A stretch of 64,000 bases of DNA, taken from the NCBI RefSeq assembly GCF_000423085.1, contig NZ_KE383975.1:63796-127795 (forward strand). Direction: 5' to 3'. Every line of letters starts with the position of its first letter. Position 1 is the first letter of the stretch. The position numbers and the translations under genes are program-made. This stretch comes from Granulicoccus phenolivorans DSM 17626 = NBRC 107789 = JCM 15570 (lineage in GTDB: Bacteria; Actinomycetota; Actinomycetes; Propionibacteriales; Propionibacteriaceae). The notes beneath the pieces were generated by a model. The model made no database searches. It was not told where the DNA came from and saw nothing but the letters and a program-made list of their open reading frames with translations. Positions 1,817-8,212 of the stretch are shown here, piece by piece.

Positions 1817-2752
1817 TCAGCCGAGCGCCAGCTGCCGGGCCCGATCGAGATACCCGGTCAGGTCCGCGCCCGGCCTCGGTACGCGTTCCAGCAACCCCGA
1901 CCCGTAGACCTCCCCGGCGTCGAGGTCGCGCAGCCAGACATAACCGAGATGGCAGTCGCAGGTCGGCTTCGGGCACGGGCGATCCACCAGCAGGTCGGGG
2001 AGCGGGTCGGCGTACAGGTTCCCGACGACCCGGGGCACGAAGTGACACCGCCGCGCGGTCCCGTCCCCGTCGATCGCCAGCGCCCGCAGGCCCGCGTCAC
2101 AGGCCAGCCCGGCCGAGCGGATCCGCCGGGTGCCCACCTCGAACAGCGGATCGACCGCCTGCAGCCGGGCCACCTCCGCCGCCGAGTAGTAACCGGCGAC
2201 CGGGGCGCCGCCGCCGGTGGCGAACGCGTTCACCCACATCGGCACCGCGGCGGGCAGTTCGGTCCGCAGCGCCTCGATCTCGGCGAAGTGCGCCCGCAAC
2301 CCGACCACCCCGACGGAGTAGGAGACGCCCAGGGCGTCCAGTCGGGCGCAGGCGGCCAGGAAGCGCTCCCGCTTCACCTCGCCGGGGTGATAGGTCGCCC
2401 AGATCCCGACCCGATCCGTCCGGGCCTCGGCCAGCCAGTCCGGGGAACCGGCCAGGTTCGTCTGGATCGCGACCCGGCGTACCTGCGGCAGCCGACTCAG
2501 CCGGATGACCGCCGCGCGGTAGCGGGCCCGGTGCAGCGCCTCCCCCCACGGGGTGAAGAACACCGAGATCGGATCCGGGTACGCCTGCACCCAGGCCACG
2601 AAGCGCTCCAGCGCCGCGGTGTCGGCAGCCGCCTCGGCCGGGGACTCGGCATGTTTGGCGAACGGGCAGTAGCCGCAGCTGTAGTTGCACGAACTCAGCG
2701 GCCCGCGATACAGCAGCGTCAGCTCCGGTACGCCGGCCCCCGCCGTCAGCAT
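1817..2752 (-). CDS. STM4011-family radical SAM protein
   Basis: 311-residue radical SAM enzyme and last gene of a five-gene minus-strand cluster. The [4Fe-4S]-binding CX3CX2C motif is CNYSCGYC with C22, C26 and C29. The C-terminal third is cysteine-rich (CDAGLRAL, RRCHF, RPCPKPTCDCHLGY), as in radical SAM proteins that carry extra clusters in a SPASM-like domain. It starts 2 bp after the stop of the second radical SAM gene, so the two are probably co-translated. The family name comes from the Salmonella cluster; neither reaction nor substrate is established as far as I know. A peptide- or protein-modifying role is inference. Confidence 0.85.
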   Translation of the reverse strand: MLTAGAGVPELTLLYRGPLSSCNYSCGYCPFAKHAESPAEAAADTAALERFVAWVQAYPDPISVFFTPWGEALHRARYRAAVIRLSRLPQVRRVAIQTNLAGSPDWLAEARTDRVGIWATYHPGEVKRERFLAACARLDALGVSYSVGVVGLRAHFAEIEALRTELPAAVPMWVNAFATGGGAPVAGYYSAAEVARLQAVDPLFEVGTRRIRSAGLACDAGLRALAIDGDGTARRCHFVPRVVGNLYADPLPDLLVDRPCPKPTCDCHLGYVWLRDLDAGEVYGSGLLERVPRPGADLTGYLDRARQLALG

Positions 2753-2754
2753 CC

Positions 2755-4086
2755 TCAGCGCTGTTCGGCCAGCGCACTGCGCCGGCGTACCTGGGGCGAG
2801 TACAGCAACGGACCGATCGCATCGGAGAGTTCGAGGCCCTCGGCGGTCAGCCGGATCCGTCCGTCGCCCGTCCGCTCGGCCAGTTCGGCCGCCACCAACC
2901 GGGCCAGAACGGGAAGCTCGGTCACCGGGTCGAGGCCGGTGGCGGCCCGGCAGGCGTCCGGATCCAGCCCGTCGACGTGCAGCAGCGTCTGCAGCACGTA
3001 GCGACGCATCCGCTCGTCGGCGGACAGCTCGATGCCGTAGGTCGCCACGGTGAAGTCATCAGTCGCGATCCAGTCCCGCAGGATGCGCTTCACCGGGGTC
3101 CGCTCGACGGCGAATTCGCTGGAGTAGTGCAGGCTGCTGGTGTACGAACGGGCCCCGCAGCCCAGGCCGACCTTTCCGTGTGGGTCGGCGGCGTACTCGT
3201 CGTCGGTGGTGCCCACTGCGGGCAGGTAGAACCGCCGCAGCGAGGATTGCCGGTAGCCCGCGTCGGTGAGCACCTCCACCGCGATCCGGTACTGCGCGAT
3301 CCGGTGGTCCGCCCAGCCGTCGATCGTGCGGCCCAGGCCGGTCAGCGGGCGGACGTACAGCGGGTAGCAGAAGATCTCCTCCGGCCGCCAGGCGAGGATG
3401 TCGGTCAGGCTGCGCCGCCAGGACTCCTCGGTCTGCCCGGCCAGCCCGTACATCAGGTCCACGTTCAGCAGCGGCGGACCGTCGGCGCGGATGGCGTCCA
3501 GGGCCCCGACCGCGGTCCGGTGCGCCTGCGGGCGGCCGATCCGATGAACCTCGCGCTCGGTGGTCGACTGGATCCCGATCGACACCCGCTCCACCCCGAT
3601 CTCGCGCAGGTAGCGCAGCCGGTCGGGGGTCGCGGTGGCCGGGGAGGTCTCGATCACCGTCGGGGTCGCGTCCGGGCGGGTGCCGAAGGCGCGTTCCAGG
3701 GCGGCGAAGGCCTGCTCGAGTTCGGCCACGGTGAGGAAGGTCGGGGTCCCGCCGCCGAGGGCCAATCGGTCGATCTGGGCGTCCCCGAGGAACTCCGCGG
3801 TCGCGGCCGCCTGGCGAGCCAGCGCCCGCAGGTACGCGGCGGTGAGCCCGTCCCCCGGATTGGCCAGGGTGAACAGGTTGCAGAAGCCGCAGCGCATCTC
3901 GCAGAACGGCAGGTGCAGGTAGCCCGAGAGGTGTTGCCGATCCTGCCCGGCCCACAGCTCGGCGAGGTCGACCGGCTGCTCGAAGGTCCGATACGCCGAC
4001 TTGTGCGGATAGCCGTAGGTATAGGCGTCGTAGGGGTCGGCCCGCAGCCGGGTGCGCAGATCGGTGTCGGGTGCGAGAGCGGTCAT
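2755..4086 (-). CDS. STM4012-family radical SAM protein (HemN-like)
   Basis: 443-residue radical SAM protein of the coproporphyrinogen dehydrogenase-like branch. The cluster motif is CEMRCGFC (C62, C66, C69), preceded by YLHLPF and followed by the GGGTPTFL glycine-rich SAM-binding segment, both typical of HemN-like enzymes. The ATG at 4086 is preferred because it overlaps the stop of the sulfatase-like gene as ATGA; an in-frame TTG-type extension to 4119 lies inside that gene. It is unlikely to be the haem enzyme itself, because it sits in a dedicated cluster with a second radical SAM protein. Confidence 0.85.
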   Translation of the reverse strand: MTALAPDTDLRTRLRADPYDAYTYGYPHKSAYRTFEQPVDLAELWAGQDRQHLSGYLHLPFCEMRCGFCNLFTLANPGDGLTAAYLRALARQAAATAEFLGDAQIDRLALGGGTPTFLTVAELEQAFAALERAFGTRPDATPTVIETSPATATPDRLRYLREIGVERVSIGIQSTTEREVHRIGRPQAHRTAVGALDAIRADGPPLLNVDLMYGLAGQTEESWRRSLTDILAWRPEEIFCYPLYVRPLTGLGRTIDGWADHRIAQYRIAVEVLTDAGYRQSSLRRFYLPAVGTTDDEYAADPHGKVGLGCGARSYTSSLHYSSEFAVERTPVKRILRDWIATDDFTVATYGIELSADERMRRYVLQTLLHVDGLDPDACRAATGLDPVTELPVLARLVAAELAERTGDGRIRLTAEGLELSDAIGPLLYSPQVRRRSALAEQR

Positions 4087-4877
4087 GGCAGGATTCCTTC
4101 CCAGTACGGCACGGTCCACACGTGCGGGTGCGCCACTCCATGACCGTGGTATCCGTCCTCGCCGAAGCAGTCCCCATGATCGGAGCAGATCACCAGCAGG
4201 GTCGGCCGCCGCAGTGCCGCGAGCACCCGACCCAATTCCTGATCACTGTACGCCAGCGCCGCGGCCTGACTGGCGACGGTGTCGCGGCGCGCATCGGGCA
4301 GGTGGAGGTGGGTCGGGGTGTGGGTGGTGGCGACGTTGATCAGCGCGAACACCGGCCGGTCGGTTGCGAGGTCGGCGTACCAGGCGCAGACGGTGTCGGC
4401 CAGCGCGGCGGTACTGATCGAGCTCTGCGGCCCGGTGGCCGGGGACCAGTACCACTCGCCGAACAGGTCCGGGATGATCCGGCCGAAGGCGCCCCGACCG
4501 GAGAAGAAGCCGACCCCGCCGAAGCAGGCGGTCCGGTAGCCGCGGGCGGCCAGCGCCCCGGGCAGGGATGGCTCCTCGAAGACGAACGTGCCCGGGCGTA
4601 CGCCGACCGCCCCGGCGAAGCTGCCGGCGAACATCCGCGGCGGGCGGAAGGCCCCGGGCGGGTCGGGCAGGAAGCCGGTGAGGAAGGCCTGGTGGGCCGG
4701 CAGGGTGAAGCTGCCCGGCGAGTGCCGCCGCTGCCACCCGTCGGGCCCGAGCAGGGCGGCCAGGTTCGGGGTCTGCCCGGCGGCGTGGGCGGCCACGGCG
4801 ACGTCGTGGCGCAGCGAGTCCAGGGTGATCCAGACGATGTCGCCCCCGGCGGCGATGTGGGTGGCCGCGTCAAGCAT
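4083..4877 (-). CDS. STM4013-family sulfatase-like hydrolase
   Basis: 264-residue protein of the alkaline phosphatase/sulfatase fold. The N-terminal metal-binding strand IVWITLDSLRHD (D20, D25) and the C-terminal metal motif CSDHGDCFGEDG are visible. It is about half the length of a classical arylsulfatase. The position that would be the formylglycine Cys/Ser is covered only by S21 in DSLRHD, so sulfatase activity is not assured; a phosphodiester or phosphonate hydrolase is possible. It overlaps the ATP-grasp-like gene upstream by 8 bp and STM4012 downstream by ATGA, which argues for tight co-expression. Confidence 0.8.
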   Translation of the reverse strand: MLDAATHIAAGGDIVWITLDSLRHDVAVAAHAAGQTPNLAALLGPDGWQRRHSPGSFTLPAHQAFLTGFLPDPPGAFRPPRMFAGSFAGAVGVRPGTFVFEEPSLPGALAARGYRTACFGGVGFFSGRGAFGRIIPDLFGEWYWSPATGPQSSISTAALADTVCAWYADLATDRPVFALINVATTHTPTHLHLPDARRDTVASQAAALAYSDQELGRVLAALRRPTLLVICSDHGDCFGEDGYHGHGVAHPHVWTVPYWEGILP

Positions 4878-6012
4878 CGAACCGGTTCCCGCGGGCCGCG
4901 ACGAAGGTGCGCAGCTCGCACTGATAGGTGTCCAGGCCGCGCCAGCGTACGCCGGTATGGAAGTCGCCGAAGGCGTTCACCTCCACCACCCGGGCGCGGC
5001 CCTGCCGGGGGACCAGCACGTCGACCCCGGCGTACCAGGTGTCGGGGAAGCAGGCGACCGCGTCCTCGGCGGTCCCCAGCACGTCCACGTAGCGGCCGCC
5101 GAGTTCGGCGCGCGCGGTCGCGACGTTCCCGCGGCGGGCCCCCAGGTGCAGGTTGGTGAACGGGCCGTGGGCGCAGCGCAGCAGCACGTGCCGGGCCCGG
5201 CCACCGATCACCACGACCCGGAAGTCCGCGGTCGCGCCGTCCAGGGACATTTTCGGGATCCACCGCTCCAGGCGCAGCGGCTGCCGGCTCAACGCATCCA
5301 GCAGGCGGATCGCCCGACCGTCGCGATAGGTCTGCAACCGGCGGCTGTTGTAGCACCCGGCGTCGGTCACCTCGACCGTGCTCCGGGCGATGATCCGGTC
5401 CCCGTGCCAGCGCAGGGCTACCAGCCCCGAAGCGCTGGAGCCGTAGCGGGGTTTCACGATTGCCTGGCTCCAGCCGGCTGCGCGGGCGCGGGCCAGCAAC
5501 TCGGTGCCGTCGACGGTGTCCCCGGCGGCGTCGGTGGTGGAGAACGACTCCGGGACCGGGACCCCGGCATTGTGCAGGGTCTGCGCGGTGAACTCCTTGT
5601 CGAACATCATCCGCAGCTCGCTCGGGTTCTGCAGCCGGCTGCGCAGGTGTCGGCTCTGCTCGTCGATCCGGGTCAGCACCCGGGCCAGGCCGGCGTACCA
5701 GGCATCGAACGGGAGCAGCGCCCCGGTGGGCGGTGGGGATCCGCCGCCGAGTTCGACCAGCCAGGCGTCGTTGGCGGGATCGTCGGAGGGGGAGTCGATC
5801 CGCAGCAGCGGGCCGTCGGCCACCCGGGCGTGCAGGCCTGCGTCGAAGGCGTCGCGCCAGGAGCAGAATGTCGGCACCGGCCAGCCCAACTCGGCGCAAC
5901 TGGCCGCGAATGCGGCGGCGCGTTCCCCACCGCCCCCGACGACGACCGTCTCCGGGGCCGGGCGTCCGCTTCCGGGCCGGCGGCCCTTCCCGGACTGGCC
6001 GGGGCCGGGCAC
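4870..6012 (-). CDS. STM4014-family ATP-grasp-like protein
   Basis: About 380 residues. An N-terminal nucleotide-fold segment (TVVVGGGGERAAAFA) precedes an ATP-grasp-like body with IVKPRYGSSASG near residues 184-195 and a C-terminal RVVEVNAFGDFH segment, resembling RimK-type carboxylate-amine ligases. Such enzymes join an amine to a carboxylate using ATP, so ligation of an amino acid or peptide is a reasonable guess. The start is uncertain: GTG at 6012 begins 8 bp after the STM4015-type stop and has only a weak ribosome-binding site. A longer form starting at 6090 would overlap the upstream gene by 70 bp. Confidence 0.75.
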   Translation of the reverse strand: MPGPGQSGKGRRPGSGRPAPETVVVGGGGERAAAFAASCAELGWPVPTFCSWRDAFDAGLHARVADGPLLRIDSPSDDPANDAWLVELGGGSPPPTGALLPFDAWYAGLARVLTRIDEQSRHLRSRLQNPSELRMMFDKEFTAQTLHNAGVPVPESFSTTDAAGDTVDGTELLARARAAGWSQAIVKPRYGSSASGLVALRWHGDRIIARSTVEVTDAGCYNSRRLQTYRDGRAIRLLDALSRQPLRLERWIPKMSLDGATADFRVVVIGGRARHVLLRCAHGPFTNLHLGARRGNVATARAELGGRYVDVLGTAEDAVACFPDTWYAGVDVLVPRQGRARVVEVNAFGDFHTGVRWRGLDTYQCELRTFVAARGNRFDA

Positions 6013-6019
6013 CGGGGAC

Positions 6020-6946
6020 CTACTCGCCGATAGCAACGAACCTGATGACCTCGCCGTTGTACTCCTCGGCCTCCTGCTGGTCGGAGACATCGACCTCGGG
6101 ACCGAGGGCCCGCAGCTTGTTCATCATGTCGTCGCTGAAGAAATGGTGGGCCAGGTTCAGCCGGCTGAGCCGGGCGATCGCGGGGGAGTCCAGCAGGGCC
6201 TGCCCGCCGGCGTCGCTCATCGTGCCCAGAGAGAGGTCGAGTACGCTCAGCCGGGACAGGATCGCCGCGTTCGCCACCAGCGGGGCCAGTTCATCGGCCC
6301 GGTAGTAGTCCATCAGGCCGAGATGGGTGAGCGAGGGCAGCACCCGCCCCGACAGCAGGGGTTCCAGATCGGCCGGCTCGATGTTGCAGCCGTACTCATC
6401 GGTCCCCAGGTAGAGCTCCAGGACCTCCAGTTTAGGCAGGGTTGCCTGCAGCACGTCGTGCAGGATTCGCTCATCCATTCCGCCGGTCTGCACGCTCAGC
6501 GAGCGCAGGCCGGCGTGCTGGAGTCCGTCGATCCGCAGCCCGTTGCCGCCGCGCAGCACGGCGTGGGTCAGGGTGGGGTAGGCGCGGAACAGCGCGGTGG
6601 CGTCGGAGTTGTGGATCCAGGAGACCTCGCAGTCCTCGTAGGACATGTCGCCGAGCACGAGAGCGCGCAGGTTCGGCAGCAGCGGGGCGGCCGCGGCGAC
6701 GGCCTGGATCACGGGGGCGGAGGTGGTGTCGTACGGCTGACCCCACAGGCCGATGGACAGACCCGGGACCTGCTCCACCTCGGGCAGCTTGAGCAACGCG
6801 CGGAATTCGGTGATCCAGTCGTCGGTGTCGGCGTCGTAGTCGACGCTGATCCGCGGGATCGAGGTGACCGGATTCGGCAGCGGGTCCCCGGGCGACCAGT
6901 TGACGATGGTGAGCCCATCGATCGCTGCGACGTTGTCGAAGGTCAT
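6020..6946 (-). CDS. STM4015-family leucine-rich repeat protein
   Basis: 308-residue protein with recurring leucine-rich segments such as LSRLSVLDLSL, IARLSRLNLAHH and LEVLELYLG through its central and C-terminal parts, and no signal peptide. It is the first gene of the five-gene cluster. The ATG at 6946 is preferred over GTG at 6955 because AGGGTGG lies 5 nt before it. LRR proteins usually bind other proteins; here it might present the substrate to, or be modified by, the radical SAM and ATP-grasp partners (inference). The 70-bp gap to the AEC permease stop at 7017 would hold the cluster promoter. Confidence 0.8.
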   Translation of the reverse strand: MTFDNVAAIDGLTIVNWSPGDPLPNPVTSIPRISVDYDADTDDWITEFRALLKLPEVEQVPGLSIGLWGQPYDTTSAPVIQAVAAAAPLLPNLRALVLGDMSYEDCEVSWIHNSDATALFRAYPTLTHAVLRGGNGLRIDGLQHAGLRSLSVQTGGMDERILHDVLQATLPKLEVLELYLGTDEYGCNIEPADLEPLLSGRVLPSLTHLGLMDYYRADELAPLVANAAILSRLSVLDLSLGTMSDAGGQALLDSPAIARLSRLNLAHHFFSDDMMNKLRALGPEVDVSDQQEAEEYNGEVIRFVAIGE

Positions 6947-7016
6947 GCGGGCCACCCTAGCGAGCCTGCGGGCCGCGGCGGCCGGTGGGGCGGCCGGCCG
7001 ATCGGGCCGGGCCGGG

Positions 7017-7922
7017 TCAGGGCAGCAGGGGCAGCGCCGCGGTAACCGCGGCGGCGGAGAACAGGCTCAGGATCGTGGTCATCGTGACCGTGTCGGCGGT
7101 GGTCCGCACGTCCCCCTTGTACTCCATGGCCAGCAGGAAGGCGTTCACCGCGGTCGGCATCGCGCCGGCCAGCACCAGGGCCTGCAGCGGTACGCCGCGC
7201 AGCCCGAACAGCAGCCCGATCCCCAGCGACAGGAACGGCATCCCGAGCACCCGGATCAGCGTCGCGGTCCACACCGCCCGGGTCAGCTTGACCCGCTTGG
7301 TGGCGCCGAGCTGAATGCCCAGGGAGAGCAGCACGATCGGCAGCGCCGCATTCGAGAGCATCTCCACCCCGCGCATGATCCCGGTCGGCAGCTGCCACCC
7401 GAGCAGCCGCATCAGCAGAGCCACCACGATGGCCCACAGGGTCGGCAGCTTGAGCAGACCGATCAGCGATCCCTTCAGTCCGCCGCTGGCCCCGAACAGC
7501 AGCGGGCCGACGATGAAGCCGAGCACGACCGAGGCGATGAACATCAGCACGCTCTGCTCGAAGCCCGCCTGACCCAGGGCGAACAACGCGATCGGCAGGC
7601 CCATGTTGCCGCTGTTGGCGATGGCGACGCTGGCCATCACCGCGCGTCGGGTCGGGGCGGCGACCTTCGGGGTGAGCAGGCCGGCGATCGCCGCACCGAG
7701 CAGGCACACCAGCACGTACGCCCCGACCACCGCGACCCCGGTCTGGCCGGACACCTGGGTGGTGAGCAGGACATTCAGGCACAGCGCCGGGGTGAGGGCG
7801 TACAGGGCGATCTTGCTGATGGTGGCTGCGTCCAGGGTGAAGAACCGGCCCAGCGCGAAGCCGGTTCCGGCGACGACGATCACCGGCAGGATCACGTTGA
7901 CCAGGGCGACCAGAAGTCCCAT
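7017..7922 (-). CDS. AEC-family (auxin efflux carrier-like) permease
   Basis: 301-residue integral membrane protein with about nine to ten hydrophobic segments, starting [19 protein letters not shown] as is typical of the family. AEC transporters move small organic anions such as malate or malonate, or amino acids, by secondary transport. The ATG at 7922 is supported by GGAG 5 nt upstream; a 36-residue arginine-rich extension to 8030 is not membrane-like and is discarded. It is divergent from the catalase gene and lies in the same direction as the downstream STM4015-type cluster. The substrate is unknown. Confidence 0.85.
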
Positions 7923-8212
7923 CTGTCTCCTTTGTGCTCGACCCGGGAACTCGCGTCGCGCCAACGCCGCGGCGCGGGCGGGTCCGTGCCCGGAGCGATG
8001 GCACGCCCGGAGCGCCGGTCGTCGAACCACGCTACCGGATCCGCTGCGTGATTGATCGGTACGCGCTGCACCGAGTCACCCCATCGATCCCATCGATTGA
8101 CAGGGGCGATCGTGGAAGCCTTGAACTTGTCAAATCACACTGGTTGGGTTGGCTGTGTAGCCGCTCGGCGATTCCGCCGGCGATCCAGGCTGCCACGAGG
8201 AGGAAGTCAGAC

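What the first reader, a model, noticed from the sequence alone, without database searches (positions are those of the whole stretch)
1817..6946. Complete STM4011-4015-type cluster in an actinobacterium: two radical SAM enzymes, ATP-grasp, sulfatase-fold and LRR proteins
Seen: five minus-strand genes joined by overlaps or 2-8 bp gaps, with CX3CX2C motifs in two products, IVKPRYGSSASG in a third, DSLRHD/SDHGD in a fourth and leucine-rich repeats in the fifth. Known: these match families named after a Salmonella cluster of unassigned function. Inference: an LRR scaffold or substrate, an ATP-dependent ligase, two radical SAM steps and a phosphate/sulfate-type hydrolase together look like a dedicated peptide, protein or small-molecule modification pathway. 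I consider this the best candidate for an undescribed system here.
Basis: partly seen in the sequence, partly recalled or inferred. Interest (0 to 1): 0.75.

Follow-up and report, generated by a model that had tools for sequence, protein, structure and literature searches.

The report
LRR protein with ligase-ready C-terminal glutamate
A five-gene bacterial cassette of unassigned function, kept in the same order from actinobacteria to Salmonella and some E. coli, probably attaches a small molecule to a leucine-rich-repeat protein whose last residue is almost always glutamate and then remodels it with two radical enzymes, which gives this old unknown a test.

Summary
Five co-directional genes at 1817-6955 (minus strand) encode STM4015, STM4014, STM4013, STM4012 and STM4011, each above its NCBIfam cut-off. 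The cassette is already named in databases, but no function was found in the papers searched. STM4015, STM4014, STM4013 and STM4012 each occur above cut-off in the same 6 of 346 actinobacterial genomes. The order is kept in at least nine phyla; E. coli (154 of 5,426 complete genomes) and Salmonella carry it.

The new evidence concerns the LRR protein STM4015. In 118 of 119 intact homologues the last residue before the stop is Glu (tail Y/F-V-A-V-S/G-E); the other four proteins show no such end. STM4015 is often duplicated (up to six tandem copies beside single enzyme genes).

STM4014 is a RimK/LysX-type ATP-grasp. Its closest folds are RimK, ArgX-LysW and LysX, ligases that act on the C-terminal Glu of a partner protein.

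Best reading: STM4014 conjugates an amine to the C-terminal Glu of STM4015. STM4011 (SkfB-like cysteines) and STM4012 (HemN/NocN-like) then modify it; STM4013, often with a HAD protein, removes phosphate. The ligation is strongly suggested but untested; chemistry and end product are unknown.

The parts
6020..6955 (-). STM4015-family leucine-rich-repeat protein; proposed acceptor or carrier. C-terminal tail ...EVIRFVAIGE-stop (ATG at 6946, alternative GTG at 6955).
   Evidence: NF038076 298 of 275 bits; AF2 pLDDT 97.5; nearest solved structure 2RA8, TM 0.81; last residue Glu in 118 of 119 homologues
6020..6025 (-). Codon of the invariant C-terminal Glu plus the stop codon of STM4015; proposed ligation site
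   Evidence: Invariant column E308 of A3; last-residue control against 4011-4014
4870..6012 (-). STM4014 ATP-grasp of the RimK/LysX type; proposed carboxylate-amine ligase acting on the STM4015 C-terminus (earlier in-frame starts at 6033 and 6090)
   Evidence: NF038074 284 of 175 bits; AF2 pLDDT 90; Foldseek and VIA best matches ArgX-LysW, LysX, RimK; motif-by-motif alignment to E. coli RimK
4083..4877 (-). STM4013 alkaline-phosphatase-superfamily hydrolase with Thr at the nucleophile position; proposed phosphatase or phosphodiesterase
   Evidence: NF038075 294 of 250 bits; Sulfatase PF00884; invariant D20, T58, H62, D212, D233, H234, H246
2755..4086 (-). STM4012 HemN-like radical SAM enzyme
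   Evidence: NF006067 506 of 380 bits; full-length match to HemN 1OLT (E 1.6e-52) and partial match to NocN (E 1e-33)
1817..2752 (-). STM4011 radical SAM enzyme with five further conserved Cys (218, 236, 260, 265, 267), twitch/SPASM-like
   Evidence: NF038073 344 of 200 bits; C-terminal match to SkfB 6EFN, E 0.0035
7017..8030 (-). AEC-type permease (Mem_trans) directly upstream, same strand, about 60-70 bp from STM4015; possibly co-transcribed, not a conserved part
   Evidence: PF03547 93.8 bits; not recurrent among the 86 loci

Best explanation
The cassette installs a small-molecule modification on the C-terminus of an LRR protein. STM4014, a RimK/LysX-type ATP-grasp ligase, activates a carboxylate of the invariant C-terminal Glu of STM4015 and joins it to an amine (amino acid or phosphorylated amine; identity unknown). 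STM4011 (SPASM/twitch-like) and STM4012 (HemN/NocN-like) then change the tethered group, and STM4013 (often with a HAD phosphatase) removes phosphate. The LRR body is the handle that the enzymes recognise; in species with several LRR copies it probably also directs the finished group to different partners. Shown here: the five families, synteny, co-occurrence, the terminal Glu, copy multiplication, the ligase fold. Inferred: the ligation itself, the order of steps, the substrates. Whether the product stays on the LRR protein (slightly favoured: no recurrent peptidase was noticed, and the LRR copies diverge) or is released, as from LysW or pearlin carriers, is open.
For: STM4015 ends in Glu in 118 of 119 homologues from Actinomycetota, Bacteroidota, Chloroflexota, Planctomycetota, Verrucomicrobiota, Myxococcota, Pseudomonadota, Lentisphaerota and Acidobacteriota, whether or not the stop overlaps the next gene (62 of 63 without overlap), while 4011-4014 end in mixed residues. 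E. coli (...NPMFTE), the solved 2RA8 protein (...YPMITE, then tag) and a stand-alone copy in G218 about 100 kb from its cluster (...RYVAAGE) keep it. STM4014: Foldseek best hits are ArgX-LysW, LysX, PsnB and RimK; VIA Z RimK 24.1, ArgX 24.0, LysX/ArgX 23.3, against about 20 for D-Ala ligases; RimK signatures align (DK, FVKP..GSSASG, DxR, TNLHLGG to SNLHRGG, EVNA). LysX/ArgX act on the C-terminal Glu of the carrier LysW (PMC9303977, PMC10433800). One to six STM4015 genes stand beside single enzyme genes. STM4011 has five further conserved Cys and matches SkfB there. HAD phosphatases recur beside, inside or fused to the cassette.
Against: No biochemistry exists. Several other ATP-grasp ligases lie within a few Z units (GshB 22.3, DcsG 21.7), so the acceptor cannot be read from the fold. 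One of 119 copies carries four residues beyond the Glu (L077). No peptidase for release was found, and the amine, the radical chemistry and the phosphate are guesses.
Confidence: 0.5

Rival explanations
1. STM4014 makes a free small molecule; the LRR protein only scaffolds the enzymes, and its C-terminal Glu docks into one of them without being modified.
For: LRR proteins are commonly binding platforms; ATP-grasp neighbours in fold include small-molecule ligases such as DcsG and GshB; the cassette has several metabolic enzymes.
Against: A docking motif rarely needs to be the exact chain end in 118 of 119 copies; a scaffold need not be multiplied up to six times beside single enzymes.
Confidence: 0.2
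2. The C-terminal Glu itself is the substrate of radical chemistry, as in a RiPP: HemN-like STM4012 could oxidatively decarboxylate the propionate-like side chain of Glu, with STM4014 acting on something else or afterwards.
For: STM4012 aligns over its whole length to HemN (1OLT, E 1.6e-52), which decarboxylates propionate side chains (own knowledge); Glu is the only invariant tail residue.
Against: It gives no role to the RimK/LysX-type ligase fold; STM4012 is well below the HemN family cut-off.
Confidence: 0.12
3. The terminal Glu is structural: the tail is an LRR C-cap and the carboxylates close the fold; the pathway product has nothing to do with the C-terminus.
For: Tail residues are predicted as ordered, with pLDDT about 94 and hydrophobic Y/F(-6) and V(-3) conserved.
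Against: Structural caps usually tolerate extensions; here the stop codon position itself is fixed across nine or more phyla, including diverged tandem copies.
Confidence: 0.1
4. LRR protein conjugated to other proteins, in the manner of Pup: STM4014 joins the C-terminal Glu to lysines of targets chosen by the LRR body.
For: Pup is ligated through its C-terminal Glu (own knowledge; a pupylation review, PMC3511204, is listed but was not read); diverged LRR bodies with a common tail would fit target choice.
Against: RimK/LysX-type ligases known so far add free amines or amino acids; the radical enzymes and the phosphohydrolase would have no role.
Confidence: 0.06

Closest known systems
STM4011-STM4015 families (NCBIfam NF038073, NF006067, NF038075, NF038074, NF038076)
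   Same: All five window proteins pass the curated cut-offs and keep the gene order.
   Different: Those models name the families only; no function or mechanism is attached, and the two papers held that mention the loci do so only in tables.
LysW/LysX (ArgX) amino-group carrier system
   Same: A carrier protein that ends in Glu plus a LysX-fold ATP-grasp; the fold match is the best by Foldseek (3VPB, 3VPD, 5K2M).
   Different: The proposed carrier is a 300-residue LRR protein, not a small zinc protein with EDWGE; there is no kinase, reductase or releasing peptidase in the cassette; two radical SAM enzymes take their place.
RimK and ribosomal protein S6
   Same: Same ATP-grasp subclass and signature motifs; acceptor is a protein C-terminus (own knowledge: S6 ends in Glu in E. 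coli).
   Different: Partner would be an LRR protein, not S6; RimK has no radical SAM or hydrolase partners of this kind.
Pearlin (PEARL) pathways such as tgl and tmo
   Same: Logic of building a modified amino acid at the C-terminus of a genetically encoded carrier, with a radical SAM step in tmo.
   Different: Ligation by ATP-grasp rather than an aminoacyl-tRNA-dependent PEARL; folded LRR carrier instead of a short peptide; no recurrent protease in the cassette.
HemN / NocN (NosN) class radical SAM enzymes
   Same: STM4012 has the same fold family, CX3CX2C motif and (against HemN) full length.
   Different: Below the HemN, HemW and HutW family cut-offs; specific RCGFCNLFT signature.
SkfB (sporulation killing factor maturase)
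   Same: Pattern of C-terminal auxiliary-cluster cysteines in STM4011.
   Different: Weak match limited to the C-terminal part (E 0.0035).

Membership tests
STM4011-4015 cassette (NCBIfam) | each protein above its curated cut-off | tested here: met
STM4011-4015 cassette (NCBIfam) | same gene order 4015-4014-4013-4012-4011 on one strand | tested here: met
RimK/LysX-type ATP-grasp ligases (STM4014) | ATP-grasp fold closest to RimK/LysX/ArgX | tested here: met
   RimK, ArgX and LysX rows within 1 Z of each other
RimK/LysX-type ATP-grasp ligases (STM4014) | signature motifs (DK, K..GS/T..G, D-x-R, S/T-N-L-H, E-x-N) | tested here: met
RimK/LysX-type ATP-grasp ligases (STM4014) | curated cut-offs of the RimK, LysX and MptN models | tested here: not met
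   27, 24 and 27 bits against 143, 276 and 350; a separate family of the same fold class
RimK/LysX-type ATP-grasp ligases (STM4014) | ATP-dependent ligation to the C-terminal Glu of a partner protein | not testable with these tools
   partner with invariant C-terminal Glu found; reaction not observable
Amino-group carrier protein (LysW) | C-terminal Glu at the chain end | tested here: met
Amino-group carrier protein (LysW) | small zinc-binding domain and EDWGE end | tested here: not met
   STM4015 is an LRR fold ending in [YF]VAV[SGA]E
Pearlin pathway | PEARL (LanB-like) ligase in the cluster | tested here: not met
   none among the five products; none noticed among recurrent neighbours
HemN coproporphyrinogen dehydrogenase (STM4012) | TIGR00538 cut-off | tested here: not met
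   108 bits against 325
Formylglycine sulfatase (STM4013) | C/S-X-P-X-R nucleophile motif | tested here: not met
   Thr (T58) in FTxxxH, invariant in the 28-sequence alignment
SPASM/twitch radical SAM (STM4011) | CX3CX2C plus C-terminal auxiliary cysteines | tested here: met
   C22/26/29 and C218/236/260/265/267 invariant; SkfB match

The most novel reading that the evidence does not exclude
A new kind of protein-tethered biosynthesis: a diversifiable family of LRR proteins, each with the same C-terminal Glu, is loaded by a RimK-like ligase and tailored by two radical SAM enzymes, so that one enzyme set arms several targeting proteins with the same unknown chemical group that stays attached.
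Probability: 0.25. Interest if true: 0.88.

Novelty: new variant of a known kind. Interest (0 to 1): 0.62.

Why it matters
The cassette is named after Salmonella genes yet has no assigned function in any paper found here, and it is present in Salmonella and E. coli strains as well as in many soil bacteria. The invariant C-terminal Glu of STM4015 and the RimK/LysX-type fold of STM4014 turn 'unknown' into one mass-spectrometry experiment. If correct, it adds a folded repeat protein to the short list of genetically encoded carriers (LysW, pearlin peptides) and probably a new small molecule or protein modification.

Tried and rejected
Housekeeping haem synthesis: rejected by family scores, and a second HemN/HemW-like gene lies elsewhere in the genome. 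STM4011 as anaerobic sulfatase maturase for STM4013: rejected, since the sulfatase nucleophile position is Thr, not Cys or Ser. Graspetide-type reading (7DRN is among the fold hits): not pursued as a membership test; no short core peptide was seen. Phage origin: three hits in the phage collection look like enterobacterial DNA, one an annotated Salmonella contig with typA and glnA. Defence: no meaningful PADLOC match. Bacteroides finegoldii L032 as a minimal system: rejected; it is a deletion scar that joins the start of STM4013 to the end of STM4012 out of frame. Stop/start overlap as the cause of the terminal Glu: rejected. First neighbour clustering picked wrong-strand ORFs in GC-rich DNA; redone by conservation. 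Full-text searches for LRR plus radical SAM clusters and for 2RA8, Q64V53, DUF6745, SEN3800 found nothing relevant. I did not scan ORFs under 60 aa.

Full report
Observation. The five minus-strand genes and their motifs are real. All five products exceed the curated NCBIfam cut-offs for STM4011, STM4012, STM4013, STM4014 and STM4015. Spacing is -8 to +7 bp when the GTG at 6012 is taken as the STM4014 start.

Is it a system? In 346 actinobacterial genomes STM4015 is above cut-off in 6, and STM4012, STM4014 and STM4013 are above cut-off in exactly the same 6, within a few kilobases of each other. STM4011 was not surveyed in that panel, but it lies in the cassette of nearly all loci examined. In the order of the window's genome, only the window's genome of 58 has an STM4014 above cut-off, so the cassette is sporadic. 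Eighty further loci from at least nine phyla keep the order 15-14-13-12-11 with few exceptions. In the STM4012 tree the window groups with a Propionibacterium metagenome bin (62% identity) outside the other 59 actinobacterial rows; long branches make this uncertain, but transfer is plausible. It also occurs on plasmid records and in 154 of 5,426 complete E. coli genomes, where a Cof-type HAD gene overlaps the end of STM4011.

The key finding. In 118 of 119 intact homologues Glu is the very last residue before the stop. It is one of only ten invariant columns, the others lying in the LRR body. The tail consensus is [YF]-[VIT]-A-V-[SGA]-E after an acidic linker. The last residues of STM4011, 4012, 4013 and 4014 are mixed. 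The Glu is kept where the stop does not overlap the next gene (62 of 63), in tandem copies, in a stand-alone copy about 100 kb from its cluster, in E. coli and in the solved structure 2RA8. STM4015 genes number one to six beside single copies of the enzymes, as expected of a substrate or carrier rather than an enzyme.

The ligase. The STM4014 model (pLDDT 90) has ArgX bound to LysW, LysX, PsnB and RimK as its best Foldseek matches; RimK, ArgX and LysX lead by VIA Z-score (about 24, against about 20 for D-Ala ligases). A profile alignment to E. coli RimK carries the signature motifs across. LysX/ArgX activate the C-terminal Glu of LysW and join its gamma-carboxylate to an amine (PMC9303977, PMC10433800); that RimK extends the Glu-ended C-terminus of S6 is established knowledge, not looked up here. 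A ligase of this class next to a partner that must end in Glu is the main argument.

The other enzymes. STM4012 aligns over its full length with HemN and partly with the methyltransferase NocN. STM4011 has five further invariant cysteines and resembles the RiPP maturase SkfB there. STM4013 is of the alkaline phosphatase superfamily with Thr where sulfatases have Cys or Ser, so a phosphatase or phosphodiesterase is likelier than a sulfatase. HAD phosphatases join the cassette in several ways: downstream Cof type (Salmonella, E. coli, Nocardiopsis, Deinococcus), between STM4014 and STM4013 (Aureispira and others), and fused to STM4011 (Bacteroides). This suggests a phosphorylated intermediate.

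Limits. None of the chemistry is shown. The AF2 tail is ordered, so a structural role for the Glu remains possible. The retained-modification reading is only slightly favoured over a released product.

Novelty. The families are named in databases, so the cassette itself is known; the proposed working principle (an LRR carrier with an obligatory C-terminal Glu, a RimK/LysX-type ligase and two radical SAM enzymes) was not found in the library searched.

Noticed in passing
L028, L029, L031, L037-L114 (53 of 86 loci), e.g. L110:11186-12388: A DUF6745 protein, usually on the opposite strand, lies beside the cassette in 53 of 86 loci; in the genome panel 3 of 6 cassette genomes have it next to the cassette, against 5 of 340 without the cassette (6 counting one sub-threshold hit). 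Not in the window's genome.
   Followed up: partly
same loci: DUF6745 proteins end in Thr at the exact C-terminus ([QE]T in 51 of 53), and 4 of 5 outside the cassette also end in Thr; N-terminal parts vary (LRR-like or other repeats).
   Followed up: partly
L028:14014-14310, L031:6442-6738, L075:12450-12920: A small protein of about 98-150 aa (QGDILI...GEATGHAH...HEEH...QREYxPG..RVVAD), without a Pfam match in the two tested, accompanies DUF6745 in about 25 loci.
   Followed up: partly
L032:9740-10120: Bacteroides finegoldii record carries a deletion scar that joins the start of STM4013 to the end of STM4012 out of frame, with STM4011 fused to a HAD domain.
   Followed up: yes
L075, L074, L077, L081: Four to six tandem STM4015 genes; one L077 copy has four residues (YLQD) after the conserved Glu.
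   Followed up: partly
window 7017-8030: AEC-type permease about 60-70 bp upstream of STM4015 on the same strand, perhaps in the same transcript.
   Followed up: no
L125:2246-3385 (G218:C52): A second, stand-alone STM4013 homologue in a genome that also has a stand-alone STM4015.
   Followed up: no
L117 (G390:C1:5831000-5842000): A distinct HemN-like protein (265 bits to the STM4012 model) lies next to an ATP-grasp gene and a DUF1152 gene.
   Followed up: no
phage collection OR845521, OR850900, AFYI01000005: Records listed as phage that appear to be enterobacterial chromosome fragments carrying the STM4013 region.
   Followed up: partly
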